Shown in pieces: positions 44,430-61,506 of a stretch of DNA of 64,000 nucleotides. Position 1 is the first letter of the stretch; every line of letters starts with the position of its first letter. The notes under the pieces were generated by a model. It was not told where the DNA came from. It saw nothing but the letters and a program-made list of their open reading frames with translations, and ran no database searches. Made by a program: the position numbers and the translations under genes. Origin of the DNA: Arundinibacter roseus (GTDB lineage Bacteria > Bacteroidota > Bacteroidia > Cytophagales > Spirosomataceae); the NCBI RefSeq assembly GCF_004348825.1, contig NZ_SMJU01000005.1, forward strand, positions 62,001 through 126,000, given 5' to 3'.

Positions 44430-44494
44430 GGAAAATGGACGAAATTAAATTTTGGATCTATTTAACTAGGCAAATATAGCCCTAAAAATTGGTT

Positions 44495-45367: not shown

Positions 45368-45383
45368 TGGCACAACATACGAA

Positions 45384-45413
45384 AAGCGGCTATCCTGAAC
45401 AAGACAGCCGCTT
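45384..45413. other. Stem-loop between rpsU and xerC
   Basis: AAGCGGCT (45384-45391) pairs with AGCCGCTT (45406-45413) over a 14-nt loop that itself partly pairs. On the minus strand only a short TTTT follows, so it could attenuate rather than fully stop transcription from rpsU into xerC. Confidence 0.6.
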
Positions 45414-45478
45414 ACAATTTTCTGTATAAACAGGATATATCTCTCCCGTCAACTAGCTCAGAAAAGCCAAATTATTGA

Positions 45479-45673
45479 CTAATCTTCGAGGTGACCGTAG
45501 GTTTTTTGCTTGTAAATAGCATTCAAAACCTCGTGACGACGTTTGATGGAAGGCTTCACAAAAGCCGTCCGTGCACGAAGCTGACGCATTGTACCAGTTC
45601 TTTCAAATTTCTTTTTGTAACGCTTCAAAGCGCGATCAATGGACTCGTTGTCTTTAACGTTAATGATAAGCAT
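45479..45673 (-). CDS. rpsU: 30S ribosomal protein bS21
   Basis: The 64-residue basic protein matches bS21: VKDNESIDRALKRYKKKFE, the basic stretch RTGTMRQLRARTAFVKPSIK, and a C-terminal RRHEVLNAIYKQKT. It binds the 30S platform; in Bacteroidota it helps hide the anti-Shine-Dalgarno end of 16S rRNA. The 20 nt before its ATG contain no AGGAGG but an AGCTCCT touching the start codon, which is odd for this gene. It leads the rpsU-xerC pair, separated by a small stem-loop. Confidence 0.96.
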   Translation of the reverse strand: MLIINVKDNESIDRALKRYKKKFERTGTMRQLRARTAFVKPSIKRRHEVLNAIYKQKTYGHLED

Positions 45674-45828
45674 AGGAGCTATATACTGTTTTTATGATTG
45701 TTCTCAAATTTCGGACTGCAAAGAAAACGCAGATTTACCAGAAAATCAAGAGTTAACTATTCTAAAATTCAACTATTTTTGGTTTTTTAATCAAAACATC
45801 TTTGAATGGCTCTTTTACCCCTGTTTCT

Positions 45829-46770: not shown

Positions 46771-46787
46771 TCACACAAATTATTTAC

Positions 46788-47444
46788 ATGACAGCAAAAA
46801 CGCATACAATCTCCGTCAGTCGAACGGCCCGCTATTTTACCCTCGGCGAACTCAATGAAACTACCGAACGGGTATGGTTTGTACTGCATGGATATGGACA
46901 ACTTGCGGAATATTTTATCCGAAAGTTCGAGAAGCTGAACGATGGCAGAACACTCGTAGTGGCGCCCGAAGCTCTTTCCCGTTTTTATACCGACGCAGAA
47001 TATAAGCGGGTCGGGGCATCGTGGATGACCCGGCAATCGTCTAAGACAGAAATAGATGACTATGTCGCTTACCTCGAAAGTATTTACAAAACAATTTTTG
47101 AAAAAGGCCTTCCAAAAGCCATTCAGCTAACCGTATTTGGGTTTTCGCAAGGTGCCACCACGGCCTGCCGTTGGCTCAATCAGGGTACGATCAGCTGTGA
47201 TCGGCTGGTAATTTGGGCGGGATATTTTGCCAATGGCATTCAGGATGTGATTGATCCCGCCCGTATTCCGTCACAAACGTATTACATTTTCGGCGATCAG
47301 GATCAGTTTCTCAACCAAATCGACTTCCCGGAATATCTGGTGCAGCTACGCAAACAGATTCCCGGCCTGAATATCCTGGATTACGCAGGAACTCACACCG
47401 TCGATCCCGAGATTTTGGGTCTGTATTTTGGCAATCAGAAATAA
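46788..47444 (+). CDS. Alpha/beta hydrolase, phospholipase/carboxylesterase type
   Basis: The 218-residue protein starts at ATG 46788; an upstream TTG overlaps the ppx stop. It has LHGYGQLAEYF for the oxyanion hole, the nucleophile Ser120 in VFGFSQGATTA, the acid in YIFGDQDQF and the histidine in YAGTHTVDPE. This is the small serine esterase family of PF02230. It probably hydrolyses a lysophospholipid or thioester in the cytoplasm. It is co-transcribed with the Ppx gene. Confidence 0.85.
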   Translation: MTAKTHTISVSRTARYFTLGELNETTERVWFVLHGYGQLAEYFIRKFEKLNDGRTLVVAPEALSRFYTDAEYKRVGASWMTRQSSKTEIDDYVAYLESIYKTIFEKGLPKAIQLTVFGFSQGATTACRWLNQGTISCDRLVIWAGYFANGIQDVIDPARIPSQTYYIFGDQDQFLNQIDFPEYLVQLRKQIPGLNILDYAGTHTVDPEILGLYFGNQK

Positions 47445-47469
47445 AATAGCGCTCCTCTTTACATTCTAT

Positions 47470-48222
47470 TTACTTACGATAAACCGTCGTGGCCGCTGCC
47501 TGCGCTGAGGCCAAAATGGTCATGTCCGAAATCGTCACGTGGGCGGGTGCCAATACTGCATAGGCGATACAATCGGCAATATCCTCGGCGCGCAGGGGCA
47601 CAAACCCTTCATACACCTTTCCGGCACGAGCTTCATCACCCTTAAAACGAATGAGCGAAAACTCCGTTTCTACCGCACCCGGTGCAATGTTTGTTACCTT
47701 GATTCCGTGCTTGGTCAGGTCCAGACGCATACCTTCACTGAGAGCTTCTACGGCGGCTTTGGAAGCACAGTACACCGTTCCGTTGGCGTAGGTTTCTTTA
47801 CCCGCAATCGAGCTGATATTTACAATATGACCTTTTCCCCGCAACACCATGCCAGGAGTCACTGCTTTGGTGACGTAAAGCAATCCTTTTACGTTGCTGT
47901 CGAGCATGGCGTCCCAATCGGCAGGATCGCCCACCTCAATGGAGTCAAAGCCATGAGCATTTCCAGCATTATTTACCAGGATATCAATTGCCTGCCATTC
48001 CGCCGGCAGCGAGTCAATGGCGTGTGTAACGGCCTTGCGGTCGCTGACGTCAAAGGTAAGAATGGTTGTGCGGGTATAGGGAGCAAGTGTCTCGCTCAGT
48101 TCGCGCAGGCGGTCCTCGCGGCGCCCGCAAAGAATGAGGTCAATCCCGCTTTTTGACAACGCCATGGCGGTGGCTTTTCCAATGCCGGACGAAGCGCCCG
48201 TTATAAGTGCAATTCTGGACAT
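47470..48222 (-). CDS. Short-chain dehydrogenase/reductase (YdfG-like)
   Basis: The 250-residue classical SDR starts at ATG 48222 (MSRIALITGASSGIGKATA). It has the cofactor loop TGASSGIG, an Arg pair after strand 2 (CGRREDRLRE) that favours NADP, NNAG at 84-87, and the catalytic triad Ser138, Tyr151 and Lys155 in ISSIAGKETYANGTVYCASK. It resembles YdfG-type 3-hydroxy acid dehydrogenases; the substrate is unknown. It is convergent with the hydrolase gene and divergent from the cysteine desulfurase gene. Confidence 0.88.
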   Translation of the reverse strand: MSRIALITGASSGIGKATAMALSKSGIDLILCGRREDRLRELSETLAPYTRTTILTFDVSDRKAVTHAIDSLPAEWQAIDILVNNAGNAHGFDSIEVGDPADWDAMLDSNVKGLLYVTKAVTPGMVLRGKGHIVNISSIAGKETYANGTVYCASKAAVEALSEGMRLDLTKHGIKVTNIAPGAVETEFSLIRFKGDEARAGKVYEGFVPLRAEDIADCIAYAVLAPAHVTISDMTILASAQAAATTVYRK

Positions 48223-48429
48223 ACGATCTAAGTTAATTGATTTTACAAAGCACAAATTAGACTTAATTTGTTAAAAAAATCTGTACCATTGAATTTTTAC
48301 TGGGCTACTCTACTGTTTTTATAGGAGAAGTTTCCTGTAAATACGATTTACTATCAAACCAGAAAACTTCCTTACGGTCTGGCATGTTTCTAAATTTTAC
48401 CTACCAATCAACCGCTCCAAATAAATAGT

Positions 48430-49584
48430 ATGTCTGCTTCCGCACGTCCGATTTATCTCGACTACAACGCCACTACTCCGCTTGATCAGCGCGTGCTCGA
48501 CAGCATGATGCCGTGGCTGACCGGGAACTTTGGCAATGCCGCGAGCCGAACACACCTCTACGGCTGGGAAGCAGCCGAAGCCGTCGCCACAGCCCGACAA
48601 CAGGTAGCAAGGATTTTGGGGGCTACTGAAAAAGAAATTGTGTTTACGAGCGGTGCCACCGAATCCAACAATCTGGCACTTAAAGGTGCTTTTGAAGCGC
48701 TCGGAGCCTCCCGAAAACATATTATTACGGTAGCCACCGAGCACAAGGCAGTGCTTGACACCTGTCAGCACCTGGAAGCATTTGGCGCAGAAGTAACCTA
48801 CCTGCTGCCGGATTCAGACGGGCTCATTTGTCCGGAACAGGTTCAGGACGCCCTTCGGCCCGATACCCTGCTGGTGTCGGTGATGTACGCCAACAACGAA
48901 ATCGGCGTGATTCAACCCATTATCGAAATCGGCAGTCTGTGCCGAAAAGCCGGTGTACTCTTCCATACCGATGCCACGCAGGCCGTGGGCAAAGTGCCGA
49001 TTGACGTCCAACACGCTGCCATTGATCTGCTGAGTTTGTCGGCCCACAAACTGTACGGCCCCAAAGGCGTGGGTGCATTGTATGTCCGCAAGGGCATTTC
49101 GCTTACGGCTCAGCTTGACGGCGGACGCCACGAGCGCGGCCTGCGCTCCGGTACGCTCAACGTGCCCGGCATTGTGGGGCTCGGTGTGGCCTGTGCGCTG
49201 GCTCAAAAAGAACTCGCTAAGGAATCAACCAGGCTAACAGAATTACGAAATACGCTGGAAAACAACCTCATAAACTCTCTCCTCAACACGCAAATCAACG
49301 GCCACCGCACGCAGCGATTGCCGCAAACCACCAACATTTCGTTTGGCGGGCTCGACGGCGAAGAACTGCTCATGTCGCTGCACCGACTGGCAGTTTCCAA
49401 CGGATCGGCTTGTACGTCGGCCTCGGTGGAGCCTTCGTTTGTACTCAAAGCCCTCGGCCTGCCCGACGACCTGGCTCATGCCTCTATTCGTTTTAGCCTC
49501 GGTCGTTTCACAACTTCCGAAGATATTGATCTGGCAATCGGCCATATACTGGAAGTGGTGTCGAGGATTCGGAATGGGGCGTAG
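48430..49584 (+). CDS. Cysteine desulfurase, IscS/NifS family
   Basis: The 384-residue fold type I PLP enzyme has IYLDYNATTPLD at the N-terminus, SGATESNNLALKG, the PLP lysine Lys207 in LSLSAHKLYGPKGVG, and the persulfide cysteine Cys328 in SNGSACTSASVEPS, on the long class I loop. It moves sulfur from cysteine to Fe-S clusters or thio-tRNA. No iscU, iscA or mnmA lies next to it, so its acceptor is unclear. The molybdenum enzyme operon 1.3 kb downstream needs Fe-S clusters and a sulfurated cofactor, but a link is only a suggestion. Confidence 0.92.
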   Translation: MSASARPIYLDYNATTPLDQRVLDSMMPWLTGNFGNAASRTHLYGWEAAEAVATARQQVARILGATEKEIVFTSGATESNNLALKGAFEALGASRKHIITVATEHKAVLDTCQHLEAFGAEVTYLLPDSDGLICPEQVQDALRPDTLLVSVMYANNEIGVIQPIIEIGSLCRKAGVLFHTDATQAVGKVPIDVQHAAIDLLSLSAHKLYGPKGVGALYVRKGISLTAQLDGGRHERGLRSGTLNVPGIVGLGVACALAQKELAKESTRLTELRNTLENNLINSLLNTQINGHRTQRLPQTTNISFGGLDGEELLMSLHRLAVSNGSACTSASVEPSFVLKALGLPDDLAHASIRFSLGRFTTSEDIDLAIGHILEVVSRIRNGA

Positions 49585-49786
49585 TATGTACGGGGAAAAA
49601 GTGAAGACAATAAAGTGTAGTTTTCACTTCGGCTAATACCTTACAGCGCACTTTTACTCCTCATAGTACTATTTCATCTTTAAATTATATATATTTGATA
49701 CCCCAACCCCAGGAAATGACGGATTGCGTTGTGGCAGGTTGGGCGGCATAGACCGAAGAAATAGAAAATCCTATCTACTGTCAGGC

Positions 49787-50770
49787 ATGAAAACTAAACC
49801 TTCTCTGGATATTTCCAAACACCTTACAGGCCGAAAGCTTGACGATATGGTCGAAAATCGCACCGCCTACGCGCTGCACATGGCCGAGCTCAATATCTAC
49901 GAAACCCACGCCCGGGCCGAAGATATTCAGCTGTCGTTCAATTATCCGGTGCTGGCAAGTATGATTCAGGGAAAAAAAGTGATGCATTTGGACGGTGTTG
50001 CGGCGTTTGATTTTTTTCCGGGTCAGTCCGTTTTGGTTCCCGGCGATGGGGTCATGCGTATCGACTTCCCGGAAGCGACCCTGCAAAGTCCTACGCAGTG
50101 CCTTGCATTGGCCCTTTCGGAAGAAAAAATACACAAACTTACGGATGATCTCAACGAGCGTGCGCCGCTCATTGATAGTGCCGATGGCTGGCAGTTTACG
50201 CCTGACAATCTATATTTTACCAATGATGAAACCATCAATCAGCTCCTCAACCGTCTGATTTTTGTGTGTACCGAAGGCAATTCCGCCCGCGATTACTTTG
50301 CTGAATTGATCTTGCAGGAACTCACCATCCGCCTGATGCAAACCAAGGCGCGCAACGTGCTCATGGCCAATTCGCAGGCACATGCTCACCGCAATCGCCT
50401 GGCGTATGCCATTCAGTATCTGCGGCAACATTTGCACGAGAGTATCTCTGTGGCCACGCTTGCGGAGCAGGCCTGCATGAGCGAGCCTACGTTTTACCGC
50501 AGTTTTAAGCAGCAATTTGGATTTTCGCCCATAGAGTTTATCAACCGCGAGCGCATTCGGCTGGCGTCGGAACTACTGCTTCAGCCCGATCGTACGATTA
50601 CGGACGTGGCCTTTGCCTGCGGGTTCAACCACGTCAATTATTTCCTGAAAGTTTTTCGGAAAAATACCGGCCTTACGCCAACACAATACAAAGAACGACA
50701 CCTCGCACGGCTACAAACACAAAACGCCCTTTGGGTTACGTCCGAATCCTGGCAAAACGGCGCATTCTGA
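49787..50770 (+). CDS. AraC family transcriptional regulator
   Basis: The 327-residue protein starts at ATG 49787; the frame is open from 49724, but those codons are not conserved. The N-terminal half is the cupin-like ligand domain of the AraC_N type (LSFNYPVLASMIQGKKVM, FFPGQSVLVPGDGVMRI). The C-terminal 100 residues hold two helix-turn-helix motifs (SVATLAEQACMSEPTFYRSF, TITDVAFACGFNHVNYFLKV). It lies 150 bp upstream of the coxG-E operon on the same strand, so it is the likely activator of that operon. The inducer is unknown. Confidence 0.9.
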   Translation: MKTKPSLDISKHLTGRKLDDMVENRTAYALHMAELNIYETHARAEDIQLSFNYPVLASMIQGKKVMHLDGVAAFDFFPGQSVLVPGDGVMRIDFPEATLQSPTQCLALALSEEKIHKLTDDLNERAPLIDSADGWQFTPDNLYFTNDETINQLLNRLIFVCTEGNSARDYFAELILQELTIRLMQTKARNVLMANSQAHAHRNRLAYAIQYLRQHLHESISVATLAEQACMSEPTFYRSFKQQFGFSPIEFINRERIRLASELLLQPDRTITDVAFACGFNHVNYFLKVFRKNTGLTPTQYKERHLARLQTQNALWVTSESWQNGAF

Positions 50771-50882
50771 TTTTTCATATACCCTTATTTATTTCTTTCC
50801 CCTACTTTGTTTACCTGTTCGATCTGATAGAATCGTGTAGCAAGTTGATGCAATCGTCCTTATTTATTGAATAATTCTATTA

Positions 50883-50890
50883 TAAATTTG
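50883..50890 (+). promoter_or_regulatory. Putative -7 element upstream of coxG
   Basis: TAAATTTG matches TAnnTTTG 32 bp before the coxG ATG. No good -33 TTTG lies at the right distance, as often seen for promoters that need an activator; the AraC gene just upstream would supply one. Confidence 0.35.
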
Positions 50891-50921
50891 AACTCTTTCA
50901 CTTTTATGACTAGAAATAACT

Positions 50922-51365
50922 ATGGACTTAACTGGCTCACACATCCTGAATGCTGATACCAACCGCATTTGGGCTATGCTGATGGATACGGACACACTCG
51001 CCCGCATTGTACCGGGCATTACACGACTGGAAAAAACCGCCGAAAATGAATACAAGGCGGTTGCTGAAATAAAAATGGGGCCCGTGAGCGGCTCTTTTTC
51101 GGGGGGATTGACGCTTCAGGATATTCGGGAAGGCGAAGGCTATACCCTGCACGTGAAGCAAAGCAGCAAAATCGGCAATGCTGACGCTACCATTCGCATT
51201 GACCTGAAACCCACTGACGAAGGCCACACCGAGCTCGTTTTTGACGGCGGTGCCAAGCTGTCGGGGCTGTTGGCCCGCACCGGAAACCGCGTCATGAGTG
51301 GCGTAGCTCATACGCTGACAAAACAGTTTTTCAACAATTTCGAGCAGGAAATAGAAACAGTATGA
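50922..51365 (+). CDS. coxG: SRPBCC family protein, CoxG-like
   Basis: The 147-residue protein begins MDLTGSHILNADTNRIWAML and has the START/SRPBCC lipid-pocket pattern of the CoxG family (PGITRLEKTAENEYKAVAEIK, KMGPVSGSFSGGLTL). In carbon monoxide oxidisers CoxG helps recruit the dehydrogenase to the membrane and may carry quinones. It lacks the C-terminal membrane-anchor extension of some CoxG proteins. It is the first gene of the operon, 68 bp before coxS. The symbol reflects family membership, not proven CO metabolism. Confidence 0.83.
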   Translation: MDLTGSHILNADTNRIWAMLMDTDTLARIVPGITRLEKTAENEYKAVAEIKMGPVSGSFSGGLTLQDIREGEGYTLHVKQSSKIGNADATIRIDLKPTDEGHTELVFDGGAKLSGLLARTGNRVMSGVAHTLTKQFFNNFEQEIETV

Positions 51366-51433
51366 CGAGGCACATTTCTCCCTGAATCACATCAAATTAC
51401 GTTTTCCAAAACCTTATAAATACCCTTAAACCT

Positions 51434-51922
51434 ATGGCAAAAATTACGGTAAAAGTTAATGGCAAAGTATACTCGCACGAAGTAGAGCCACGCCTGTTGC
51501 TGGCGCATTATCTGCGGGAAGTACTGAGCCTCACCGGCACACACATTGGCTGCGATACCAGTAGCTGCGGCTCCTGCACCATTCACCTGGATGGCCAATC
51601 CGTCAAGTCTTGCTCTATGTTGGCCGTACAGGCCGACGGCTGTGAAATTACGACAATTGAAGGCTTGGCGCCTTCGGGCAGCGAACTGCACCCCTTGCAG
51701 GAAGGCTTCAAAGAGTGCCACGGGCTGCAATGCGGTTTTTGTACGACGGGCATGATTATGTCTGCGGCAGATTTTCTTCAATCGAACCCGGACCCTAGCG
51801 AAGAACAAATTCGGCACGCATTGGAAGGTAATTTCTGCCGCTGCACCGGCTACCACAACATTGTTAAATCAGTACAATGGGCTGCGCAGAAAATGAAGGA
51901 AGATAAAGCCGTAACCGCCTGA
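51434..51922 (+). CDS. coxS: Molybdenum hydroxylase small subunit with two [2Fe-2S] clusters, CoxS-like
   Basis: The 162-residue protein has an N-terminal plant-ferredoxin fold with Cys40, Cys45, Cys48 and Cys60 ([18 protein letters not shown]) for the distal cluster. A four-helix domain holds Cys100, Cys103, Cys135 and Cys137 ([23 protein letters not shown]) for the proximal cluster. It passes electrons from the molybdenum site to FAD in the medium subunit. All eight cysteines are present, so the protein should be functional. A 197-bp gap follows before coxL, unusually long inside such an operon. Confidence 0.95.
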
Positions 51923-52061
51923 TCGAACGAAGCGATTCACCTCGTTCATTTGCGCAGGTATTTCTCCCAGCATTTAAAGTTTATACATATAAAAACTTTC
52001 TTATGTTTTTGAGAAACTTAATTTATCTCCCTCAAAATTAAATATTTATAAAACCTAATTG

Positions 52062-52085
52062 CTAACAGCTTAACAGCTAACAGCT
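52062..52085 (+). repeat. Short direct repeats in the coxS-coxL gap
   Basis: Three copies of AACAGCT (CTAACAGCT-TAACAGCT-AACAGCT) lie 35-58 bp upstream of the coxL start codon. They may be chance, slippage, or a short protein-binding site; nothing else stands out in the gap. Confidence 0.5.
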
Positions 52086-52119
52086 CCTTATTCAATCACT
52101 CATTCAACCCAAAGCATTT

Positions 52120-54501
52120 ATGAGTAATAAATATATTGGTCAATCGGTGAGGCGTACCGAAGACAAGCGCTACATCACCGGAAAAGGCCGCTATACCGAC
52201 GATATAAAACTAGTGGGCATGACCCACGCTTCTTTTGTAAGGAGTCCATATGCTCACGCCAGGGTAATCAGCATTGATCTATCTGCTGCCCAAAACATGC
52301 CGGGCGTGGTCGCCATTTTTACCGGCGACGACATCAAGGCCACGGGCATTGTGGGTGTGCCGACAGGATGGCAGGTTAATTTCAAAAATGGCGATACTAT
52401 GAAGGAACCGCCTCATCCCCTGCTGATTGCAACCGGCAGCACGTCCAAGCATATCGGCGACCCGGTGGCGGTTGTCATTGCGGAAACCTATGCAGCCGCA
52501 GTAGATGCCTCCGAGGCCGTAGAAGTGGAATGGGAAGAACTTGACGCTGTAACGGATCCGTTCAAAGCAGCTCAGGAAGGCGCAGCACTCGTGCACGCTG
52601 ACGCTCCCGGCAACCTGGCTTTTGACTGGGAGCTGGGCAATCCGCTCAGCGAAGTTGACGAGGCTATCGCGCAGTCGGCGCATGTTACATCGCTCGAATT
52701 TGTGAATCAGCGCATGATTCCAAACGCCATTGAGCCGCGCGCCTATATTGGTCATTATGAAGAACATATTGATAAATACACGCTGTATACCTCCACGCAA
52801 AATCCGCATTTGATACGTCTGTTGATGTGTGCTTTTGTGCTTGGCCTGCCCGAACATAAAGTACGTGTGCTGGGGCCGGACGTAGGCGGTGGTTTTGGGT
52901 CAAAAATTTTCCACTATACGGAAGAAGCGCTCGTGACCTGGGCTTCCAAACAAATTAACCGGCCCATTAAATGGACCGAAACCCGCTCGGAGGCATTCAT
53001 GCTCGACGCTCACGGCCGCGACCACGTGACAAAAGCCGAAATGGGATTTGACGCCGACGGAAACGTGCAGGCACTGCGCATAAAAACCTATGCAAACCTT
53101 GGTGCCTACCTGTCGACTTTTGCCCCGGCAGTGCCTACGTATCTGCACGGAACACTTTTGCAGGGGTTATACACTACTCCCAAAATCCACATTGATCTGT
53201 GCGGGATGTTTACGCATACCGTGGCCGTGGATGCCTACCGAGGAGCCGGACGCCCCGAAGCTACCTACCTGTTGGAACGCCTCATGGATTTGGCCGCGCT
53301 GGAAATGGGGAAAGATCCGGTGCAGCTGCGCAAGCAGAATTTTATTCCGGCATTTAATGGCGTAAGCGAGCCCGGCTACCAAACACAAGTGGCGCTGCAA
53401 TACGACTCCGGGAACTATCAGGGAGTGCTGGATCGTGGTGTAGAAATGCTGGGCTACGAAAATTTCCGGCAGATGCAACGCGAAGCTGCCCAAAATGGCA
53501 AACTCCTGGGTGTCGGATTTTCGACCTACGTAGAAGCTTGCGGCATTGCTCCTTCCGCCGTTGTGGGCGCATTGGGTGCGCGCGCCGGACTTTATGAATC
53601 GGCGCAGGTACGCGTGCAGCCTACGGGCAAAGTAAGCGTGTACTCGGGCTCCCACTCGCACGGACAGGGTCACGAAACCACCTTTGCGCAGGTCGTGGCT
53701 GACAAGCTCGGAATTCCGATGGAAGATGTAGACATCATTCACGGCGACTCTGACGCAGTGGCCTTCGGTATGGGAACCTACGGCTCACGTAGCCTTGCGG
53801 TGGGTGGCTCGGCGATTGTCAAAAGTATTGAGAAAGTATTGGAAAAAGGTGCGAAAATTGCCGCACACAAGCTCGAATGCGCCGAAGGCGACCTCGAATA
53901 TGCCGAAGGAAAATGGACAGTGAAAGGAACCGACCAATCGGTTAGTTTTGGCGACGTTGCCCTTACGGCTTACGTACCACACGTCTACCCGCAGGGCCTC
54001 GAACCCGGCCTGGATTTTTCGAGTTTCTACGATCCGGCCAATTTTACCTATCCATTTGGCTGTCATATTGCCGTTGTAGAAGTGGATACAGAAACCGGGA
54101 AAGTAACTCTCAAACGATTTATTGCCGTAGACGACGTTGGAAATGTGGTTAACCCCATGATTGTAGACGGCCAAATCCACGGAGGACTGGCGCAGGGAAT
54201 CGGGCAGGCGCTGCTGGAAGGCGCTATTTACGATGAAAATGGACAGTTGATTAACGGTTCGTACATGGATTATGCCATGCCTCGTGCCGACGATTTGCCG
54301 ATGTTTGAACTCGACCGTCAGGAAACTCCCTGCCCGCACAATCCGCTGGGTGTAAAGGGAGCCGGTGAGGCGGGCTGCATTGGTTCTACGCCTGCCGTGG
54401 TAAATGCGGTGATTGATGCACTTTGGAGTGGCGGACATCCTGTGAAGGATATTCGCATGCCACTCACCCCGGAACGCGTGTGGCGTGCTATGCAATCGTG
54501 A
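52120..54501 (+). CDS. coxL: Xanthine dehydrogenase family molybdopterin-binding subunit, form II CoxL-like
   Basis: The 793-residue protein is the large subunit of a molybdenum hydroxylase: an N-terminal a/b hammerhead (SVRRTEDKRYITGKGRYTDD), molybdopterin dinucleotide-binding parts (VLGPDVGGGFGSK, SHSHGQGHETTFAQV), and the base-catalytic Glu750 in VKGAGEAGCIGS. The active-site loop at residues 372-378 reads AYRGAGR. Proven CO dehydrogenases (form I) have AYRCSFR there, with the copper-binding cysteine. This glycine-type loop defines form II, whose members mostly do not oxidise CO efficiently. It is therefore probably a hydroxylase for an unknown heteroaromatic or aldehyde substrate. Confidence 0.93.
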   Translation: MSNKYIGQSVRRTEDKRYITGKGRYTDDIKLVGMTHASFVRSPYAHARVISIDLSAAQNMPGVVAIFTGDDIKATGIVGVPTGWQVNFKNGDTMKEPPHPLLIATGSTSKHIGDPVAVVIAETYAAAVDASEAVEVEWEELDAVTDPFKAAQEGAALVHADAPGNLAFDWELGNPLSEVDEAIAQSAHVTSLEFVNQRMIPNAIEPRAYIGHYEEHIDKYTLYTSTQNPHLIRLLMCAFVLGLPEHKVRVLGPDVGGGFGSKIFHYTEEALVTWASKQINRPIKWTETRSEAFMLDAHGRDHVTKAEMGFDADGNVQALRIKTYANLGAYLSTFAPAVPTYLHGTLLQGLYTTPKIHIDLCGMFTHTVAVDAYRGAGRPEATYLLERLMDLAALEMGKDPVQLRKQNFIPAFNGVSEPGYQTQVALQYDSGNYQGVLDRGVEMLGYENFRQMQREAAQNGKLLGVGFSTYVEACGIAPSAVVGALGARAGLYESAQVRVQPTGKVSVYSGSHSHGQGHETTFAQVVADKLGIPMEDVDIIHGDSDAVAFGMGTYGSRSLAVGGSAIVKSIEKVLEKGAKIAAHKLECAEGDLEYAEGKWTVKGTDQSVSFGDVALTAYVPHVYPQGLEPGLDFSSFYDPANFTYPFGCHIAVVEVDTETGKVTLKRFIAVDDVGNVVNPMIVDGQIHGGLAQGIGQALLEGAIYDENGQLINGSYMDYAMPRADDLPMFELDRQETPCPHNPLGVKGAGEAGCIGSTPAVVNAVIDALWSGGHPVKDIRMPLTPERVWRAMQS

Positions 54502-54544
54502 GGCAGATTTCTATTTTCTTTCATCCTAAACACAAAATCTACGT

Positions 54545-55372
54545 ATGATTTCTTACGAATTTGACTATACAAGGCCCGATACGGTAGAAGCAGCACTCGA
54601 CCTGCTGGACGACGACAGCAAGATTCTGGCCGGTGGGCATAGCCTGATTCCGGCGCTCAAACTGCGACTTTCGGCACCCGGAAAACTAATTGACATCGCC
54701 CGCATTCCGTCCCTGAAAGGAATAAAAATGGACGGGAATGAGCTGGTCATTGGTGCTGCCGCTACGCATAGCGACATTCTGGAATCGGATCTGATTAAGC
54801 AGCATTTACCGATGTTTGCCGAAGGTGCCGCTCTCATTGGCGACCCCATGATCCGGCACAAAGGAACTCTCGGGGGCAGCCTTGCCCACGCTGACCCCTC
54901 TGCCGACTGGCCCGCTATGGTACTTGCCGCTGAGGGAACCGTGGTGGTGCAGAGTAAAACGGGAACACGGTCCATTAGCTCGGATGATTTCTTTACCGGT
55001 TTTTATTCCACTGCCCTGGAAAGCGGAGAGATTATCACCGAAATCCGTTTTCCGATTCCGGCAGAAGGCACCAAAATGACGTACCAGAAATTTGTACAAC
55101 CGGCTTCCCGTTTTGCGATTGTAGGGTGTGCTGCTTTGCGTCATCCTGACGGCACGGCGCGGGTTGCCTTTACGGGCGTAGCCGATGCGCCCTTTCGTGA
55201 TACAGCCGTAGAAAATGCCGTGGGCGATTGGTCGGAAGAGGCCCTGGAAGCAGCCGTTGCATTAACTGCTCAGGGTATGGAGTTTAATGTAGACCACTAT
55301 GCCTCCGAAACCTACCGGCATCATTTGGCGCGGGTCTATTGCAGAAAAGCTTTGAAAGCCCTTCTTTATTAA
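54545..55372 (+). CDS. coxM: Molybdenum hydroxylase FAD subunit, CoxM-like
   Basis: The 275-residue protein has the FAD-binding motifs LAGGHSLIPALKLRLSAP (residues 30-46) and KGTLGGSLAHADPSADWP of the medium subunit, followed by the C-terminal CO_deh_flav_C domain (AIVGCAALRHPDGTARVAF). It receives electrons from coxS and passes them to an external acceptor. It lies 43 bp after coxL. A long stem-loop separates it from coxD. Confidence 0.94.
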   Translation: MISYEFDYTRPDTVEAALDLLDDDSKILAGGHSLIPALKLRLSAPGKLIDIARIPSLKGIKMDGNELVIGAAATHSDILESDLIKQHLPMFAEGAALIGDPMIRHKGTLGGSLAHADPSADWPAMVLAAEGTVVVQSKTGTRSISSDDFFTGFYSTALESGEIITEIRFPIPAEGTKMTYQKFVQPASRFAIVGCAALRHPDGTARVAFTGVADAPFRDTAVENAVGDWSEEALEAAVALTAQGMEFNVDHYASETYRHHLARVYCRKALKALLY

Positions 55373-55385
55373 TAATGTCTCGTGT

Positions 55386-55444
55386 TTTTTGAATGAAAGA
55401 ATGACTACCCGTTTGTTTTCTGATAGTCTTCTTTCATTCAAAAA
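55386..55444. other. Long stem-loop between coxM and coxD
   Basis: TTTTTGAATGAAAGA (55386-55400) pairs perfectly with TCTTTCATTCAAAAA (55430-55444), and GACTA with TAGTC inside. The T-run is on the 5' side and the A-run on the 3' side, so it is not a classical terminator. It could be an mRNA processing or stability element that separates the structural subunits from the maturation genes. Confidence 0.8.
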
Positions 55445-55465
55445 CATGTTTCCTGAAACAATTGC

Positions 55466-56374
55466 ATGCAAAATCCTGAATTAGAACGTATCGCCGAGCT
55501 TTTATTGACGCAGGGCTACATCACCGAGCCGTCCGTCACGATGGCTGTGTATTTATCGATGCAGCTTCAAAAACCATTGCTGATTGAAGGTCCGGCAGGA
55601 GTAGGCAAAACCGAAATTGCCAAAGTAATGGCACGGGCTATGGATACGGATCTGATTCGGCTGCAATGCTACGAAGGGCTTGATGCATCGCATGCTTTGT
55701 ATGAATGGAATTATCAGCGGCAGTTGCTCCATCTAAAAATGCTGGAAGTGCTGTCCAAAACGTCCGATCAATCGCTCCCGGCAGAAGATGAATTGTTTAG
55801 TGAAAAATTCCTCCTGAAACGCCCACTGCTTCAAGCGATTACCCATCACAAATCTCCCGTTTTGCTGATTGACGAGGTAGATCGGGCGGATGAAGAATTT
55901 GAAAGCTATTTGCTGGAAGTACTATCAGACTGGCAAATTACAATTCCAGAAATCGGTACGATTCGAGCCACCCACATTCCGCAGGTGATCGTGACCGGAA
56001 ACCGTGTGCGGGAGCTATCGGACGCGCTCCGCCGCCGCTGCCTGTACCTTTGGATTGATTATCCTGATTTTGAAAAAGAATTGGCGATTGTTAAAGGGAA
56101 AGTCCCTCAACTCAATGAAAAAATTGCCGAACAAATCTGCCGTTTTATGCAGGAATTGCGTCAACTGCGACTCGAAAAAACACCCGGTATTGCCGAAACG
56201 ATCGACTGGGCTACGGCATTGGCAGCGCTGCATTTTGATTATTTGCCCAAAAAACTAATTGAACAAACGCTGGGCGTTATTCTGAAAGACTGGAAAGATA
56301 CCCGAACTGCTCAACTTTCTCTGACAGAATTATACGCAAAAATGGGGGTTATTTCCAAGTTGGATGCTCTGTAA
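55466..56374 (+). CDS. coxD: MoxR family AAA+ ATPase, CoxD-like
   Basis: The 302-residue protein has Walker A EGPAGVGKTE (residues 41-50), Walker B SPVLLIDEVDRAD, the sensor VIVTGNRVRELSDALRRRCL with arginine finger, and the MoxR C-terminal lid. In CO dehydrogenase loci CoxD is the AAA+ chaperone that inserts or matures the metal active site together with CoxE. Its presence next to a form II large subunit suggests active-site maturation also occurs here, without copper. It starts 93 bp after coxM, behind the stem-loop. Confidence 0.92.
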   Translation: MQNPELERIAELLLTQGYITEPSVTMAVYLSMQLQKPLLIEGPAGVGKTEIAKVMARAMDTDLIRLQCYEGLDASHALYEWNYQRQLLHLKMLEVLSKTSDQSLPAEDELFSEKFLLKRPLLQAITHHKSPVLLIDEVDRADEEFESYLLEVLSDWQITIPEIGTIRATHIPQVIVTGNRVRELSDALRRRCLYLWIDYPDFEKELAIVKGKVPQLNEKIAEQICRFMQELRQLRLEKTPGIAETIDWATALAALHFDYLPKKLIEQTLGVILKDWKDTRTAQLSLTELYAKMGVISKLDAL

Positions 56375-56403
56375 AAATCGATAACTTACTATCATTCCAC
56401 ACG

Positions 56404-57525
56404 ATGATCTCACGCCACACGTCCCTTGTTGACAACATCGTGGCTTTCTGCCGCTATTTACGGGCCAATGGTTTTGCAATTGGTCCCGAAGAACAGGCTA
56501 CGGCCCTGCGTGCAGCCGCGCTGCTTTCTCCCAACAACCGCGCTACTTTTGCCCTGGCTTTGCAGGTAAGTCTCACCCGCACGGTGCAGGAAGTTGAACA
56601 GTTTGGACAGCATTTTGAGGCTTACTGGCAGGAATTGGAACATGCCGTAGATAGTAAAATAAAGGAAGATGCGACTAAAAAATCCAAACAAAATGGTAGC
56701 TCGCAACCTTCCTTTGACACCTTAAAATCGTGGTTGAGCGGCAATAAAAATACGCAGGAAATCGAAACGGCGACCTACTCTACTGCCGAAACGCTGAGCC
56801 AACAGGATTTTTCACTTATCCCGTCGGATCAGCTGAAAGAGCTGGAACAACTCCTCCGCGAAATTGCCCAAACCCTGAGCCGACGACTAAGCCGCCGGCA
56901 GGAGCGGGCGTTTCATCGCCGTACGTTTGACCTCCGTCGTACGCTTCGTCACAACCTGCGCCGCGGGGGAGAAATGATGGAGCTTCACTACAAACGCCCT
57001 CGCCGCAACCGCACCAAACTGGTGATTTTGGCTGATGTCAGCAAATCCATGGATTTGTACAGCGCTTTTCTGATTCAGTTTATGTATGCTTTTCAGCGGG
57101 TATTCCGGCGCATGGAAACCTTCGTTTTTAGTACCGACCTGCACCGGATTACCTCGGATTTAAATCAGCAAAATTATCAGGAAGCCTTACAAAAACTATC
57201 TGCCAAACCCTCAGGCTGGTCGGGTGGTACGCGCATCGGGGCGAGCTTTCAAACGTTTGTGGCGGACTACGGTCGTCTGCTCACGAAAGACACCCTTGTG
57301 GTGATTCTCAGCGACGGCTGGGACACCGATCAGGGCGAAACTCTGGCCGATGCCATGCAGCAAATTCACCAAAAATCCCGCAAGGTAATTTGGTTAAATC
57401 CTTTGGCCGGACGCCCCGGCTATGAGCCGCGCACTGCTGCCATGCAGGCTGCACTACCCGCTATTGACGTATTTGCCTCGGCTCACAATGCCGCAAGCCT
57501 GCGCGCGCTGGGAAAGTGGCTGTAA
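56404..57525 (+). CDS. coxE: VWA domain-containing protein, CoxE-like
   Basis: The 373-residue protein has an N-terminal helical part with a CoxE pattern (AFCRYLRANGFAIGPEEQ), a basic middle (RRQERAFHRRTFDLRRTLRHN), and a C-terminal von Willebrand A domain. The MIDAS residues are visible: DVSKSMD at 211-217, the conserved Thr in SGGTRIGASF, and the Asp in ILSDGWDTDQGE. It works with the CoxD ATPase as an adaptor. It starts 29 bp after coxD and is the last gene of the operon; no coxF/xdhC-type or mobA-type gene follows. Confidence 0.92.
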   Translation: MISRHTSLVDNIVAFCRYLRANGFAIGPEEQATALRAAALLSPNNRATFALALQVSLTRTVQEVEQFGQHFEAYWQELEHAVDSKIKEDATKKSKQNGSSQPSFDTLKSWLSGNKNTQEIETATYSTAETLSQQDFSLIPSDQLKELEQLLREIAQTLSRRLSRRQERAFHRRTFDLRRTLRHNLRRGGEMMELHYKRPRRNRTKLVILADVSKSMDLYSAFLIQFMYAFQRVFRRMETFVFSTDLHRITSDLNQQNYQEALQKLSAKPSGWSGGTRIGASFQTFVADYGRLLTKDTLVVILSDGWDTDQGETLADAMQQIHQKSRKVIWLNPLAGRPGYEPRTAAMQAALPAIDVFASAHNAASLRALGKWL

Positions 57526-57563
57526 GGGAAACCATAAAAATTTCACCAGAAAATCACAGCACT

Positions 57564-59198
57564 TTACCTGGAAACTATCCCGGCATCCACATAAAAATTT
57601 CGATCAACTTCCAGGGCCGTTGAACCTTTGGTTTTCAGTGCTTTCCAGGCCGTTTCGGGATAAATTATCTGTGGCTTTTTACCAGCCAAGGTAATTTTAA
57701 CGGGCATATCAAAACCTTCCACGACATTAGCCCAGCGGTAGCGCAGGGTTTTTCCACTCATTGAATATTCCAGTCGGGGAATGCGCACATCGCGCAGGTA
57801 TTGGTCAAATACCTTTGTGAAATTACGCCCGGCCTGCTGACTGATGTAGTTTTCAATTTCAGAACCCATCACAGTCTTGTGGTAGTACGTTTTGTTCATT
57901 CCCCGCAAAATAGACCGCCACTTTTCATCATCGTTCACGATTTGCCGAATGGTGTGCAGCATATTTCCGCCTTTGTAGTACATATCACCTGAGCCTTCCT
58001 GATTGACGCCATACACACCCACAATCGGGCTTTTGTTCTGAATCAGTTTACGGGTACCAATCACATAATCTGCTCCGGCTTCTTTGCCAAAATGATACTC
58101 GGTATAGAGATTTTCGGAATAGTTGGTAAAACTTTCGTGTACCCACATATCGGCTACATCTTTGTAAGTAATGTTATTGGCAAACCATTCATGCCCGCTT
58201 TCATGAATGATTATAAAGTCCCACTTTAAACCCCAGCCGGTATTGGATAAATCGCGCCCGAGATAGCCGTTTTTAAACCCATTGCCGTAGGTAACCGAAC
58301 TTTGGTGTTCCATGCCGAGGTAAGGAACCTGCACGAGCTTGTAGCCATCTTCGTAAAAAGGATACGGCCCAAACCAGTGTTCAAATGCTTTGAGCATCAG
58401 CGGCACCTGCTTAAATTGTTCTTTGGCTTTTTCCAGATCGGCCGGCAGCACGTAGTAGCTCAGGTCAAGTTTGCCTTTTTCACCGTCAAAAGTTTCTTTC
58501 CAGCTTACGTAGTCGGCCACGTTCATATTGACCCCATAATTATTGATCGGATTGGCTACAAACCAATGAAACGTACGGCTTCCGTCAGCATGTTCTGTTA
58601 CGTTACGCAACTGCCCGTTCGATACATTCATGAGGGGTTTTGGTACCCGGATGTTGATCTGCATGCTATCGGGCTCTTCGTACATGTGATCCTTGCAGGG
58701 CCACCACACGCTGCTGCCCAATCCCTGACACGATGTTGCAATGAACGGATTGCCTTTGCCGTCTTTTTCCCACTGCACGCCTCCTTCCCAGGGCGGGCGG
58801 GTTGCTACTTTGGGTTTTCCGGAATAAAATACCTGCACGAATTCCTGTTTTCCTTTTTCCTGAATTTTTGTCAGCGTGATAAAATACGCATTGCCATCCC
58901 GCTGAAATTGAAGCTCCTGTCCGTTTTGAACGACTTTGTCAATCGAGAGCGGTGGCTGCAAATCTATTTGCATTATCTGATGAGGTTTCAACACCGTGTA
59001 GTACACCGTGTTGCTTCCCCGCAGGCTACTATCCGCCGGATTTGCGCTGATGTCGAGCTTATACGATGAAAGCCGCCACCAATCCCGCCCCGGCCCTACG
59101 CTCCCGCGCAAGGTGTCTTGATGGGTAAAACCTAAATTCTGGCCAAAAGCGACGGCTGAAAAAAGCACAAAAAAAAGACTGAGGAAATACTTTGTCAT
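57564..59198 (-). CDS. M1 family aminopeptidase
   Basis: The 544-residue protein has a signal peptide (MTKYFLSLFFVLFSAVAFGQ). It has the zinc site H332-E-S-G-H336 with the third ligand Glu355 (HESGHEWFANN, MWVHESFTNYSE). The usual GxMEN substrate loop appears as YLGMEHQSSVTYGNGF. It is shorter than full M1 enzymes and lacks the C-terminal helical domain, like many exported Bacteroidota members. It trims N-terminal residues of peptides in the periplasm. It is convergent with coxE. Confidence 0.92.
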   Translation of the reverse strand: MTKYFLSLFFVLFSAVAFGQNLGFTHQDTLRGSVGPGRDWWRLSSYKLDISANPADSSLRGSNTVYYTVLKPHQIMQIDLQPPLSIDKVVQNGQELQFQRDGNAYFITLTKIQEKGKQEFVQVFYSGKPKVATRPPWEGGVQWEKDGKGNPFIATSCQGLGSSVWWPCKDHMYEEPDSMQINIRVPKPLMNVSNGQLRNVTEHADGSRTFHWFVANPINNYGVNMNVADYVSWKETFDGEKGKLDLSYYVLPADLEKAKEQFKQVPLMLKAFEHWFGPYPFYEDGYKLVQVPYLGMEHQSSVTYGNGFKNGYLGRDLSNTGWGLKWDFIIIHESGHEWFANNITYKDVADMWVHESFTNYSENLYTEYHFGKEAGADYVIGTRKLIQNKSPIVGVYGVNQEGSGDMYYKGGNMLHTIRQIVNDDEKWRSILRGMNKTYYHKTVMGSEIENYISQQAGRNFTKVFDQYLRDVRIPRLEYSMSGKTLRYRWANVVEGFDMPVKITLAGKKPQIIYPETAWKALKTKGSTALEVDRNFYVDAGIVSR

Positions 59199-59261
59199 GA
59201 AATTGTCAGGAAGATAAAAATAGCAAAAACGAATCGAATGAATTTTTATTTATTGGGAAAA

Positions 59262-60248
59262 CTACTTTTCCAATACCTCCATAGAGGTTAATTCCGGTCC
59301 GCCGCCGCGGTTGGCCGAACCTGCCACTACGTACACTTTACCATTGACTACCACGGCTCCGGTGCCATGCCGACCCTGAAACAGCGATGGGAGTTTTTCC
59401 CAGGTTCCGGTTTTGGTATTAAAGCCTTCAACCTCGCTGTGCGCAGGCACTTGTTTGTCGCTTTCACCCCCAATAATGAGTACTTTCTGCCCATAAGCCA
59501 CGGCCATATTTCCAGCGCGAAGCGTGGGTAAATTATTGGCAGCTTCAAGCGTTGTCCAGGAATTGGTTTTAAAATCATAGACATCAACTTCCGGAATAGT
59601 GAGGTTGAGCACCTGCTTGATTCGGGCCGTAGAAAGTCGACCGCCGGCTACATAGAGCTTACTGCCAACCATAGCCACCGACACGTGGTCGCGGGGGCGG
59701 GGGGCGTCGGGCAGAGTACGCCAGGTATTGGTTTTGGGGTCGTACTCATCAAACCAGGCCACGTGTCCATCCCAATGCCCATCCTGAATTCCGCAAATAA
59801 TATAGATTTTATCATTGTACACAAAAGCCCCGGAAGCTCCCCGCAACCGATCTTTGGGAATGGCAGGACCTTCACGCCATTCGTCGCGCTCGGGGTTGTA
59901 AATGTACATCACTGGAATTGGGGTTTCGTGCGGATAACTGCCCGTAAATGCCCCAACCACATAGACTTCATCCCGAAACGTAATTGCCTGAAAATGGCTC
60001 ATTTCCAGCGGCGCCATCGCTTTGGTTGTCCAGGTATCTTTTTTGGGATCGTAGCTATCAATTGGCTTAACACCGCGGCCACCGAGCAAATAAAGCTTGC
60101 CTTTGACGGCTGTCAGGGCACTTTCGTGCCGTGCCGTAGGCAGGCTCATGGGCTCAGCCGCCTTCCAGATTTGTGCATTGGCAACAGTAGCAAACGCTCC
60201 GGCAAACATCACGTAAGTCAGACACGTTTTGATTAAATATGGCTTCAT
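59262..60248 (-). CDS. Exported Kelch-repeat protein
   Basis: The 328-residue protein starts at ATG 60248 with a signal peptide (KPYLIKTCLTYVMFAGAFATVANAQ). It then has about six Kelch blades: SALTAVKGKLYLLGGRG, FVYNDKIYIICGIQDGH, VAMVGSKLYVAGGR, NMAVAYGQKVLIIGGES and VVVNGKVYVVAGS, each with the double glycine and the spaced Tyr/Trp. This folds as a beta-propeller. It may bind sugars or proteins in the periplasm or act like a mutarotase; nothing in the context decides. Confidence 0.88.
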   Translation of the reverse strand: MKPYLIKTCLTYVMFAGAFATVANAQIWKAAEPMSLPTARHESALTAVKGKLYLLGGRGVKPIDSYDPKKDTWTTKAMAPLEMSHFQAITFRDEVYVVGAFTGSYPHETPIPVMYIYNPERDEWREGPAIPKDRLRGASGAFVYNDKIYIICGIQDGHWDGHVAWFDEYDPKTNTWRTLPDAPRPRDHVSVAMVGSKLYVAGGRLSTARIKQVLNLTIPEVDVYDFKTNSWTTLEAANNLPTLRAGNMAVAYGQKVLIIGGESDKQVPAHSEVEGFNTKTGTWEKLPSLFQGRHGTGAVVVNGKVYVVAGSANRGGGPELTSMEVLEK

Positions 60249-60392
60249 AGTTCTGCGGTTTTGGGTCATGTATACGAAGTAAACCAAAAAGGAAAGATTT
60301 ATCTACAATATACCGAATCTTGATCAAAGTCGAGACAATTCTACGGTCTTTGAGTTAGGTTAGTTGTCTCTTCTGTACAAATCGGTAAATAG

Positions 60393-61334
60393 CTAAACCG
60401 GAAACGGTTTTACTGCCGACACCACGTACATCATAGCCCCACCGCCGGAATGGTATTTTCGGGCATTGATAAAGCGTTCAGTTTTTTCACTCAGATGTGC
60501 ATATTTCCGGACGTAGTACTCGTAAAAATCCAGAGATTCCTGACCCAGCGCTTTGAAATAGTCATATTCGCTAAACTCCTCAGAATTCCAGCGATCGCCC
60601 GATTTCCATTGCTGACGAGTCGCTACCTGCTCGGCAGTATCGTACGGCGGATACATGGCAATTGCTTTATCCGAAAGCCGTACGTCAATGGATTCCAGAC
60701 CGGCCTGCGCCAGCAGCCCCGGCACGAGGTCGCCCAGAGAGTTGTCGCCTTGCCCCAGTTCCTTTTTTCCGCGTTCAAAAAGCAGAGCATATTTTACATG
60801 TTCCAGCACGTCATCAACGGGATCGTTGCTAGAAATCGAACTTCGGGTAAGGCTTTGCACAAGATTATTTGGCTCAGCGCACAAAATAATTCCACCCGGA
60901 CGCAGCACCCGAACCATTTCCGCAATTACCTCCGTAGGCTGCGGCACGTGAATGAGCAGAGTTTGGCACGTAACCAGATCAAACCAATTGTCGGGATAAG
61001 GCAGCGTATCGGCGTTGGCTTTTTTTAACTCAAAATCAACCCCTTTTTCTTCAAAGTACGCTCGAAGAGCCGGACTCCCTTTTGCCCACTTGCGGTCGCT
61101 GTCTACCCCGCAAACCTGTATGGGAGTATCTTCTGTGGGAGTCAGATAATTGACCAGGAGTTTACTCCAATGGCACTGTCCGCAGCCTACATCAAGCATG
61201 CTGTGGCATTGATGCAGGTCGAGCCGCCGGGCCAGCAGGTTCAGGAAACTCTCATTCCACCAAAAATCTCTATAATCGCCAAAAAAATCCTCTGAATGTC
61301 CTTTCTTCCTGGTTGCTGCACGGGTTTCCTTCAC
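60393..61334 (-). CDS. Class I SAM-dependent methyltransferase
   Basis: The 313-residue protein has the SAM-binding motif I SMLDVGCGQCHWSKLL (about residues 44-59), an acidic motif II region VCGVDSDRKWAKG, and the post-motif LPYPDNWFDLVTCQTLLIHV as in the methyltransferase 11/25 families. The C-terminal 150 residues are helical and specific to this protein. The substrate is unknown; the position between the Kelch and DUF1080 genes gives no clue. Confidence 0.87.
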   Translation of the reverse strand: MKETRAATRKKGHSEDFFGDYRDFWWNESFLNLLARRLDLHQCHSMLDVGCGQCHWSKLLVNYLTPTEDTPIQVCGVDSDRKWAKGSPALRAYFEEKGVDFELKKANADTLPYPDNWFDLVTCQTLLIHVPQPTEVIAEMVRVLRPGGIILCAEPNNLVQSLTRSSISSNDPVDDVLEHVKYALLFERGKKELGQGDNSLGDLVPGLLAQAGLESIDVRLSDKAIAMYPPYDTAEQVATRQQWKSGDRWNSEEFSEYDYFKALGQESLDFYEYYVRKYAHLSEKTERFINARKYHSGGGAMMYVVSAVKPFPV

Positions 61335-61506
61335 TAGTTATTCTTTGTTTTTTAGGTTAAAAAATGACATTTGTCGCCGAATGTTTGTAGTTCAAAGATA
61401 GAAAAAACGACTTTGAATCCGGCATTGTAGTATATTTTGGTCAAATTTGGCTCTATTGCTTTGGGCAACGGACCCGCGTATTTTTAGACTTTAATTTATT
61501 TTTTTC

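What the first reader, a model, noticed from the sequence alone, without database searches (positions are those of the whole stretch)
50922..57525. Form II CO-dehydrogenase-like operon of unknown substrate in a Bacteroidota genome
Gene order coxG-S-L-M-D-E with all Fe-S cysteines, FAD motifs and the catalytic Glu is intact. The large-subunit loop is AYRGAGR, not the CO-specific AYRCSFR. The MoxR/VWA maturation pair is kept, although it is best known for building the Cu-Mo site, which the missing cysteine makes unlikely here. The real substrate and the role of coxD/E are therefore open questions.
Basis: partly seen in the sequence, partly recalled or inferred. Interest (0 to 1): 0.65.

Follow-up and report, generated by a model that had tools for sequence, protein, structure and literature searches.

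The report
Copper-free CO-dehydrogenase-like molybdenum enzyme operon
A Bacteroidota bacterium carries a complete six-gene operon for a molybdenum enzyme that looks like CO dehydrogenase but lacks the copper-holding part; it may oxidise a small aldehyde rather than CO, and it keeps helper genes that were thought to build the copper site, which makes their real job testable.

Summary
Window 50922-57525 (+) encodes intact CoxG-S-L-M-D-E in a Spirosoma-family genome. CoxL has AYRGAGR (Gly375 where O. carboxidovorans has Cys388) and the order is S-L-M: by published criteria a 'form II' enzyme, a known kind whose substrate is called unresolved. Of 104 homologues at 50% identity or more, 0 have the cysteine; the tree separates them from form I.

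Two additions. First, CoxE follows this copper-less CoxL: 18 of 19 genomes with it, 1 of 80 without, and that one has form I. Published mutants assign CoxD to Mo sulfuration but CoxE to copper insertion, so CoxE kept without a copper site strains that model. Second, neighbours hint at a small aldehyde: a PedF/PQQ island beside Roseobacter homologues and a haem N-demethylase-like gene between coxM and coxD in four relatives. This is suggestive only: few independent events.

Best reading: Cu-free, sulfurated Mo hydroxylase passing electrons, probably through CoxG, to quinone. New member of a known kind; the CoxE question is the interesting part.

The parts
48430..49584 (+). IscS-type cysteine desulfurase; plausible sulfur donor (linked to the cox genes in some relatives only)
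   Evidence: PF00266; NCBIfam PRK14012 547.3 bits, just under its cut-off 548; present in 12 of 88 loci, the window counted
49724..50770 (+). AraC-family regulator with PF06719 N-terminal domain; candidate operon regulator
   Evidence: PF06719, PF12833; a match of 30% identity or more somewhere in 17 of 88 loci, the window counted
50922..51365 (+). coxG, 147 aa; likely quinone-handling or docking partner; without the C-terminal amphipathic tail of some relatives
   Evidence: PF06240 82.6 bits; PDB 2pcs_A E 3.2e-16 and CoxG 8uds_D E 1.2e-7; tails compared
51434..51922 (+). coxS, two [2Fe-2S] clusters
   Evidence: PF00111, PF01799; both Cys patterns
52120..54501 (+). coxL, Mo-binding large subunit, AYRGAGR type
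   Evidence: PF01315, PF02738, PF20256; motif; tree
53233..53253 (+). codons of AYRGAGR (residues 372-378)
   Evidence: position
54367..54369 (+). codon of Glu750, aligned with O. carboxidovorans Glu763
54545..55372 (+). coxM, FAD subunit
   Evidence: PF00941 166 bits, PF03450; AGGHS, TLGG
55466..56374 (+). coxD, MoxR-type AAA+ ATPase
   Evidence: PF07728, PF00004; Walker A; the name MoxR is by position and by homologues so annotated
56404..57525 (+). coxE, VWA protein with MIDAS-type motif
   Evidence: PF05762 210.9 bits; DVSKS

Best explanation
CoxSLM is a copper-free molybdenum hydroxylase of the xanthine-oxidase family (form II). Shown: the domains, cluster ligands, catalytic-position Glu, absence of the copper cysteine and of form I's Phe, a separate clade. 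Inferred from the family: a sulfurated Mo-cytosine-dinucleotide site uses water to oxidise the substrate; electrons run Mo -> two [2Fe-2S] -> FAD -> CoxG -> menaquinone. Inferred from neighbours of relatives only: the substrate is a small aldehyde (formaldehyde one candidate), turned into the acid for detoxification plus energy. CoxD (MoxR ATPase) with CoxE (VWA) is a dedicated maturation machine whose common task is not copper loading but opening, sulfurating or repairing the Mo site, with XdhC and an IscS-type desulfurase supplying the sulfur.
For: Cu-free hydroxylase: of 104 homologues 102 read AYRGAGR, 2 ALRGAGR, 0 have Cys; 5 of 5 form I references read AYRCSFR; TIGR02416 634 bits against cut-off 991, while a form I protein from a family relative scores 1205. 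CoxE tied to it: 18 of 19 against 1 of 80 genomes (Fisher 1.4e-17, 5.9e-13 within the family, not corrected for relatedness). Sulfuration: XdhC-like genes in 20 and IscS in 12 of 88 loci. Aldehyde: PedF annotated in 8 of 9 Roseobacteraceae loci opened, with PQQ-alcohol dehydrogenase in 3 and pqq genes in 4; the one tested is nearest quinoprotein ethanol dehydrogenase 6zcv. N-demethylase-like gene (PF11927) about 1.05-1.34 kb from coxL in 4 of 4 genomes holding both.
Against: The aldehyde step rests on few independent events: every PedF case is Roseobacteraceae, 0 of the 8 other annotated form II loci opened have it (one of these, L144, has an unclassified PQQ-binding-like protein), and the PF11927 cases are two genera. 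PF11927 presence as such is barely enriched (4 of 19 against 4 of 80, p 0.04; 0.22 within the family). PQQ-alcohol dehydrogenase over cut-off is in 1 of 99 relatives, one without this operon. No scanned neighbour in the window names a substrate. Roseobacter and Sinorhizobium form II loci have no annotated MoxR/CoxE pair beside them, so it is not needed by, or not linked to, every form II. CoxG here lacks the tail, so membrane delivery is not shown. HAD type II-like genes in 10 of 88 loci do not fit simply.
Confidence: 0.42

Rival explanations
1. Same copper-free hydroxylase, but the substrate is an N-heterocycle or aromatic compound (as in quinoline or nicotine-pathway hydroxylases).
For: Quinoline 2-oxidoreductase (492 bits) is nearer, and 6-hydroxypseudooxynicotine dehydrogenase (419 bits) as near, as glyceraldehyde oxidoreductase (418 bits); Phe->Gly would widen the pocket (inference).
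Against: The four flanking proteins scanned (IscS, AraC, M1 peptidase, kelch) are not heterocycle enzymes; other flanks were not scanned. The homologue on a nicotine-soil Arthrobacter plasmid is only 37% identical with a different loop, AFRGVGY.
Confidence: 0.22
2. Glyceraldehyde (or sugar-aldehyde) oxidoreductase related to the archaeal enzyme.
For: Of the NCBIfam models, glyceraldehyde dehydrogenase alpha, beta and gamma score highest for L, M and S: 690, 283 and 242 bits; 4zoh is Foldseek rank 11. A GlpD-like protein lies beside L177 and L181 (identified by eye).
Against: All three are below the equivalog cut-offs 790, 350 and 290; by phmmer, CO dehydrogenases and quinoline oxidoreductase are nearer than 4zoh.
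Confidence: 0.13
3. A CO dehydrogenase working without the Cu-Cys site, as form II was once proposed to be.
For: CoxG, D and E kept; nearest solved chains are form I enzymes, 8uem 603 bits, also Foldseek rank 1.
Against: The Cu cysteine is kept in 0 of 104 homologues. Seven genomes carry a separate form I gene alongside this one (L026, L027, L170-L174). Isolates with only form II often show no CO consumption (PMC13203968 passage).
Confidence: 0.04
4. CoxD/E serve another molybdenum enzyme and co-occur with this one only by shared ancestry or operon history.
For: Roseobacter and Sinorhizobium form II loci lack an annotated adjacent pair.
Against: CoxE in 18 of 19 against 1 of 80 genomes, in 7 of the 18 on another contig or about 196 kb away (contig breaks in draft genomes may hide some linkage); the only CoxE genome without this CoxL has form I.
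Confidence: 0.12

Closest known systems
'Form II' CO dehydrogenase / CoxL (King and Weber classification, as cited in PMC13203968 and PMC13240472)
   Same: AYRGAGR motif, gene order S-L-M, separate from form I
Form I aerobic CO dehydrogenase (O. carboxidovorans, M. smegmatis)
   Same: fold, subunits, CoxD, CoxE, CoxG
   Different: no Cu cysteine, no Phe390, shorter loop, order S-L-M not M-S-L, no CoxF/XdhC gene beside it in the window
Archaeal glyceraldehyde oxidoreductase (NF041018-NF041020, PDB 4zoh)
   Same: highest NCBIfam scores for all three subunits
   Different: every score below the equivalog cut-off
MoxR-VWA machines such as the CbbQ-CbbO Rubisco activase (titles and abstract starts seen; the MoxR-VWA make-up is recalled)
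   Same: AAA+ ATPase paired with a VWA protein acting on a cognate enzyme (analogy)
   Different: the client here would be a molybdenum hydroxylase; no activity shown

Membership tests
Form I aerobic CO dehydrogenase | AYxCSFR with the Cu-binding cysteine | tested here: not met
   AYRGAGR, Gly at the cysteine
Form I aerobic CO dehydrogenase | TIGR02416 equivalog cut-off 991 bits | tested here: not met
   634.3 bits; control L025 1205.1
Form I aerobic CO dehydrogenase | gene order M-S-L | tested here: not met
   S-L-M; O. carboxidovorans M-S-L
Form I aerobic CO dehydrogenase | CO oxidation | not testable with these tools
   needs an assay
Form II CoxL | AYRGAGR and order S-L-M | tested here: met
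   criteria from PMC13203968
Form II CoxL | groups with published form II reference proteins | tested here: inconclusive
   S. meliloti pSymB L147 falls among AYRGAGR proteins, but its identity with a published reference accession was not checked
Xanthine-oxidase family hydroxylase | Mo domains, 2 x [2Fe-2S], FAD domain, catalytic Glu | tested here: met
Xanthine-oxidase family hydroxylase | Mo cofactor with sulfido ligand | not testable with these tools
   needs purified enzyme
Glyceraldehyde oxidoreductase | NF041018/19/20 cut-offs | tested here: not met
   690/790, 283/350, 242/290 bits
CoxD/CoxE maturation pair | AAA+ with Walker A and VWA_CoxE with MIDAS-type motif, adjacent | tested here: met
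CoxG | PF06240 domain | tested here: met
   82.6 bits against 22.2
CoxG | C-terminal membrane-binding tail | tested here: not met
   protein ends 10 residues after its QFF motif; about 10 of 59 homologues have an amphipathic-looking tail (by eye)

The most novel reading that the evidence does not exclude
CoxD/CoxE is not at heart a copper-loading system but a general molybdenum-site 'activase', a MoxR-VWA machine analogous to the CbbQO Rubisco activase that opens folded hydroxylases so that the Mo can be sulfurated or repaired; and this widespread Bacteroidota enzyme is a Mo-dependent small-aldehyde (formaldehyde) : menaquinone oxidoreductase.
Probability: 0.15. Interest if true: 0.75.

Novelty: new member of a known kind. 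Interest (0 to 1): 0.45.

Why it matters
Form II 'CO dehydrogenases' can be picked up as CO oxidisers by homology surveys (PMC13203968 passage), and two 2026 papers still call their role unclear or unresolved. This group gives a natural experiment: a maturation protein assigned to the Cu-Mo site is kept by an enzyme that lacks the copper ligand. That makes the separate jobs of CoxD and CoxE testable, and the aldehyde lead gives a first substrate panel.

Tried and rejected
Structure: an AlphaFold2 model of CoxL from a 26-row alignment reached only pLDDT 70.4, with segments around the active site (such as 372-376 and 734-749) under 50, so no pocket analysis was made; Foldseek only confirmed the family.

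Glycine-betaine demethylase as a formaldehyde source next to Ruegeria form II (L128, L131): considered, then dropped as support, because the Rieske protein scores 112 bits against a GbcA cut-off of 670. Sarcosine oxidase near Sulfitobacter S223, FdhD plus an FdhF/YdeP-family protein after coxE in L072 and an aldehyde-reductase-like protein in L125 (325 bits, cut-off 470) are single cases and carry no weight on their own.

PQQ-alcohol dehydrogenase (TIGR03075) in the 99 relatives: over cut-off in 1 (G018), which is not among the 20 with a CoxL match; 70 of 99 have weaker matches. This does not support the aldehyde reading in this family. RNA families: 0 Rfam matches at gathering score in 44000-62000. 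A Bacteroidetes-type promoter pattern gave 1 match in the window, at 35603, none near coxG; chance mean 2.05.

The AraC regulator's PF06719 domain recalls E. coli YqhC, which governs an aldehyde reductase; that link is from memory and was not tested.
Full report
Observation. Cluster and nucleotide motifs are present. CoxL reads VD-AYRGAGR-PE; against O. carboxidovorans CoxL (taken from its plasmid record) Cys388 is Gly375, Phe390 is Gly377, Glu763 is Glu750, and the loop is one or two residues shorter; the roles of those residues are recalled. The genome has five matches to the Mo-binding domain PF02738 and one XdhC, in a cluster of Moco-type genes (by eye) about 264 kb downstream on the same contig.

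Kind of enzyme. NCBIfam puts L, M and S nearest to glyceraldehyde dehydrogenase, with CO dehydrogenase second for L, all below cut-off. The nearest solved chains are CO dehydrogenases, then quinoline 2-oxidoreductase, 6-hydroxypseudooxynicotine dehydrogenase and glyceraldehyde oxidoreductase. I extracted 114 CoxL-family proteins, the window's counted, from the loci then held, dropping those alike in a central stretch: 104 are at least 50% identical to the window protein, of which 102 read AYRGAGR and 2 ALRGAGR; none has the cysteine; the catalytic-position Glu is present in all 102 that cover it (L122 and L142 do not). All 5 form I references read AYRCSFR. A tree of 59 of the 114 (I left out 54 of the Bacteroidota-dominated group and the broken L142) gives the Bacteroidota-dominated group with the window 100/100 and form I 100/100 as separate groups; long branches make the outer placements unsure. 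The only biochemically studied row in that tree that I can name is the O. carboxidovorans enzyme (L145), which falls in form I; so no characterised substrate fell in the window's group, but few were offered. Eight genomes hold a form I gene (L025-L027, L170-L174); seven of them also hold this type and one, G013, does not. So the two forms are not alternatives in these cells.

Distribution. The AYRGAGR type is in 19 of 99 near relatives (20 have a CoxL match at E 1e-100; G013's is form I) and in 10 of 296 genomes drawn across the phylum. The genome collection gave 582 relatives in a capped scan, of which the best 80 were kept, 69-91% identical, mostly Bacteroidota with three Calditrichota, one Neomarinimicrobiota and one SAR324 record.

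Neighbourhood and maturation. I compared 88 loci: the window and 87 of 98 fetched loci, 11 duplicates dropped (my own ORF caller, which misses or mislabels some short genes). Of the 65 longer than 14 kb, coxD is found in 52 and coxE in 47. The order is G-S-L-M-D-E in 27 of 88, D-E-G-S-L-M or D-E-S-L-M in 10, and mostly shorter or cut versions otherwise. Searching the 99 relatives with CoxE: it is in 18 of the 19 genomes with the AYRGAGR CoxL (the miss, G012, is 82% complete with the operon near a contig end) and in 1 of the 80 others, G013, which has form I. In 7 of the 18, coxE is on another contig (6) or about 196 kb away (G049); contig breaks in draft genomes may hide some linkage. Fisher p is 1.4e-17, or 5.9e-13 within the family; neither is corrected for relatedness. 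XdhC-like genes (clusters c6 and c19, named by eye) occur in 20 of 88 loci and an IscS-type gene in 12 of 88.

Why that matters. In O. carboxidovorans (PMC4240915: abstract, sections 21 and 23 and passages seen) CoxD is needed for sulfuration of Mo, while coxE and coxF mutants had no or almost no Cu but about stoichiometric cyanolysable sulfur; the authors assign CoxE and CoxF to copper insertion, though each mutant lacked both proteins and contained a share of unsulfurated sites. XdhC with a cysteine desulfurase sulfurates Moco in R. capsulatus (PMC2997495, passages), and the sulfido ligand is essential in the family (PMC3877041, abstract start in the listing). An enzyme without the copper ligand therefore has a use for CoxD, XdhC and IscS but none, on that model, for CoxE. 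Its co-occurrence suggests that CoxE does something else or something more. An activase-like role of the MoxR-VWA pair, as in CbbQO (PMC4660213 and PMC8718961, titles and abstract starts; the MoxR-VWA make-up recalled), is the analogy I favour; it is inference. Against a universal role: the nine Roseobacter loci and the Sinorhizobium locus opened have no annotated MoxR/CoxE pair beside them; four of the Roseobacter loci do have a short VWA protein nearby that I did not test, and these gene tables are incomplete. Two Azospirillum, one Microvirga and two haloarchaeal loci do have the pair.

Electron exit. CoxG is reported as membrane anchor (PMC11962113, passages) and as a menaquinone-binding carrier (PMC13240472 citing Kropp et al. 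2025, which I did not read). The window's CoxG has the domain but stops 10 residues after its QFF motif; about 10 of 59 homologues carry a further stretch ending in an amphipathic-looking sequence such as FIAWLKRLFG (by eye; an automatic count of long tails after QFF gave 6 of 59, one of them without such an end). So membrane delivery in this lineage is open.

Substrate. I opened 17 annotated plasmid-borne AYRGAGR loci, chosen by me from hit lists, plus one without annotation. Eight have cytochrome PedF within about 9 kb, all Roseobacteraceae (8 of 9 such loci), with a PQQ-alcohol dehydrogenase in view in 3 and pqq genes in 4; 0 of the other 8 have PedF, though one (L144) has an unclassified PQQ-binding-like protein. 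The one dehydrogenase tested is nearest quinoprotein ethanol dehydrogenase (6zcv, 821 bits). In four relatives (two genera) a gene of the haem-dependent oxidative N-demethylase family (PF11927; one of the four scanned, all four found by the family search), formaldehyde-releasing by name and recall, sits between coxM and coxD; in 4 of 4 genomes holding both it is about 1.05-1.34 kb from coxL. But 4 further genomes hold it without cox, and the enrichment is weak. These two links both imply an aldehyde, hence my choice; they are too few to be firm. PQQ-alcohol dehydrogenase over cut-off is in only 1 of 99 relatives, one without this operon, so the Roseobacter partnership is not repeated in the window's family. 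HAD type II-like genes in 10 of 88 loci (clusters c12 and c22; two scanned, both over cut-off) remain unexplained.

What is known. Form II is defined by AYRGAGR and S-L-M and its role is called unclear or unresolved (PMC13203968, PMC13240472, PMC6794299 passages; similarly for soil homologues, PMC6784897 passages). PMC11411561 (passages) states that form II lacks a consensus order of accessory genes, and describes coxD, E and F present and transcribed in SAR202 genomes with form II; so accessory genes beside or with form II are known. In ten searches of the open-access library I saw, in the listings and in the passages opened, no report of CoxE tracking copper-less CoxL across genomes or of an aldehyde role for this group; most subscription papers are not held.

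Verdict. Observation confirmed; interpretation partly supported. A new member of a known kind, with one sharp open question (what CoxE does without copper) and one weak lead (small aldehydes).

Noticed in passing
L025-L027, L170-L174: Form I (AYRCSFR) CoxL genes; seven of these eight genomes also hold the AYRGAGR type (G013 holds form I alone).
   Followed up: partly
L034, L035, L036, L038: N-demethylase-family gene (PF11927) between coxM and coxD in two related genera.
   Followed up: yes
L060, L069, L086, L097, L098, L107, L099, L110, L114, L122: Haloacid-dehalogenase type II-like genes near cox operons (L107 and L099 tested, both over the NCBIfam cut-off); no explanation.
   Followed up: partly
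L180:4958-5947: A MoaA-like gene sits between coxD and coxE; MoaA- and MoeA-like genes lie near several other cox loci (identified by eye).
   Followed up: no
L177, L181: HxlR-like regulator next to coxD and a GlpD-like protein divergent from coxS, identified by eye only.
   Followed up: no
L122 (coxL), L142 (coxL): CoxL reading frame not in one piece in a Maribacter MAG and on Tateyamaria omphalii plasmid pDOK1-4-4; sequencing error or decay.
   Followed up: no
L028: A 37% identical homologue in genome G016 with loop PMRGSGR and Asp at the catalytic Glu position.
   Followed up: no
window 51923-52119: AT-rich gap of 197 bases between coxS and coxL, long for this operon; no Rfam match.
   Followed up: partly
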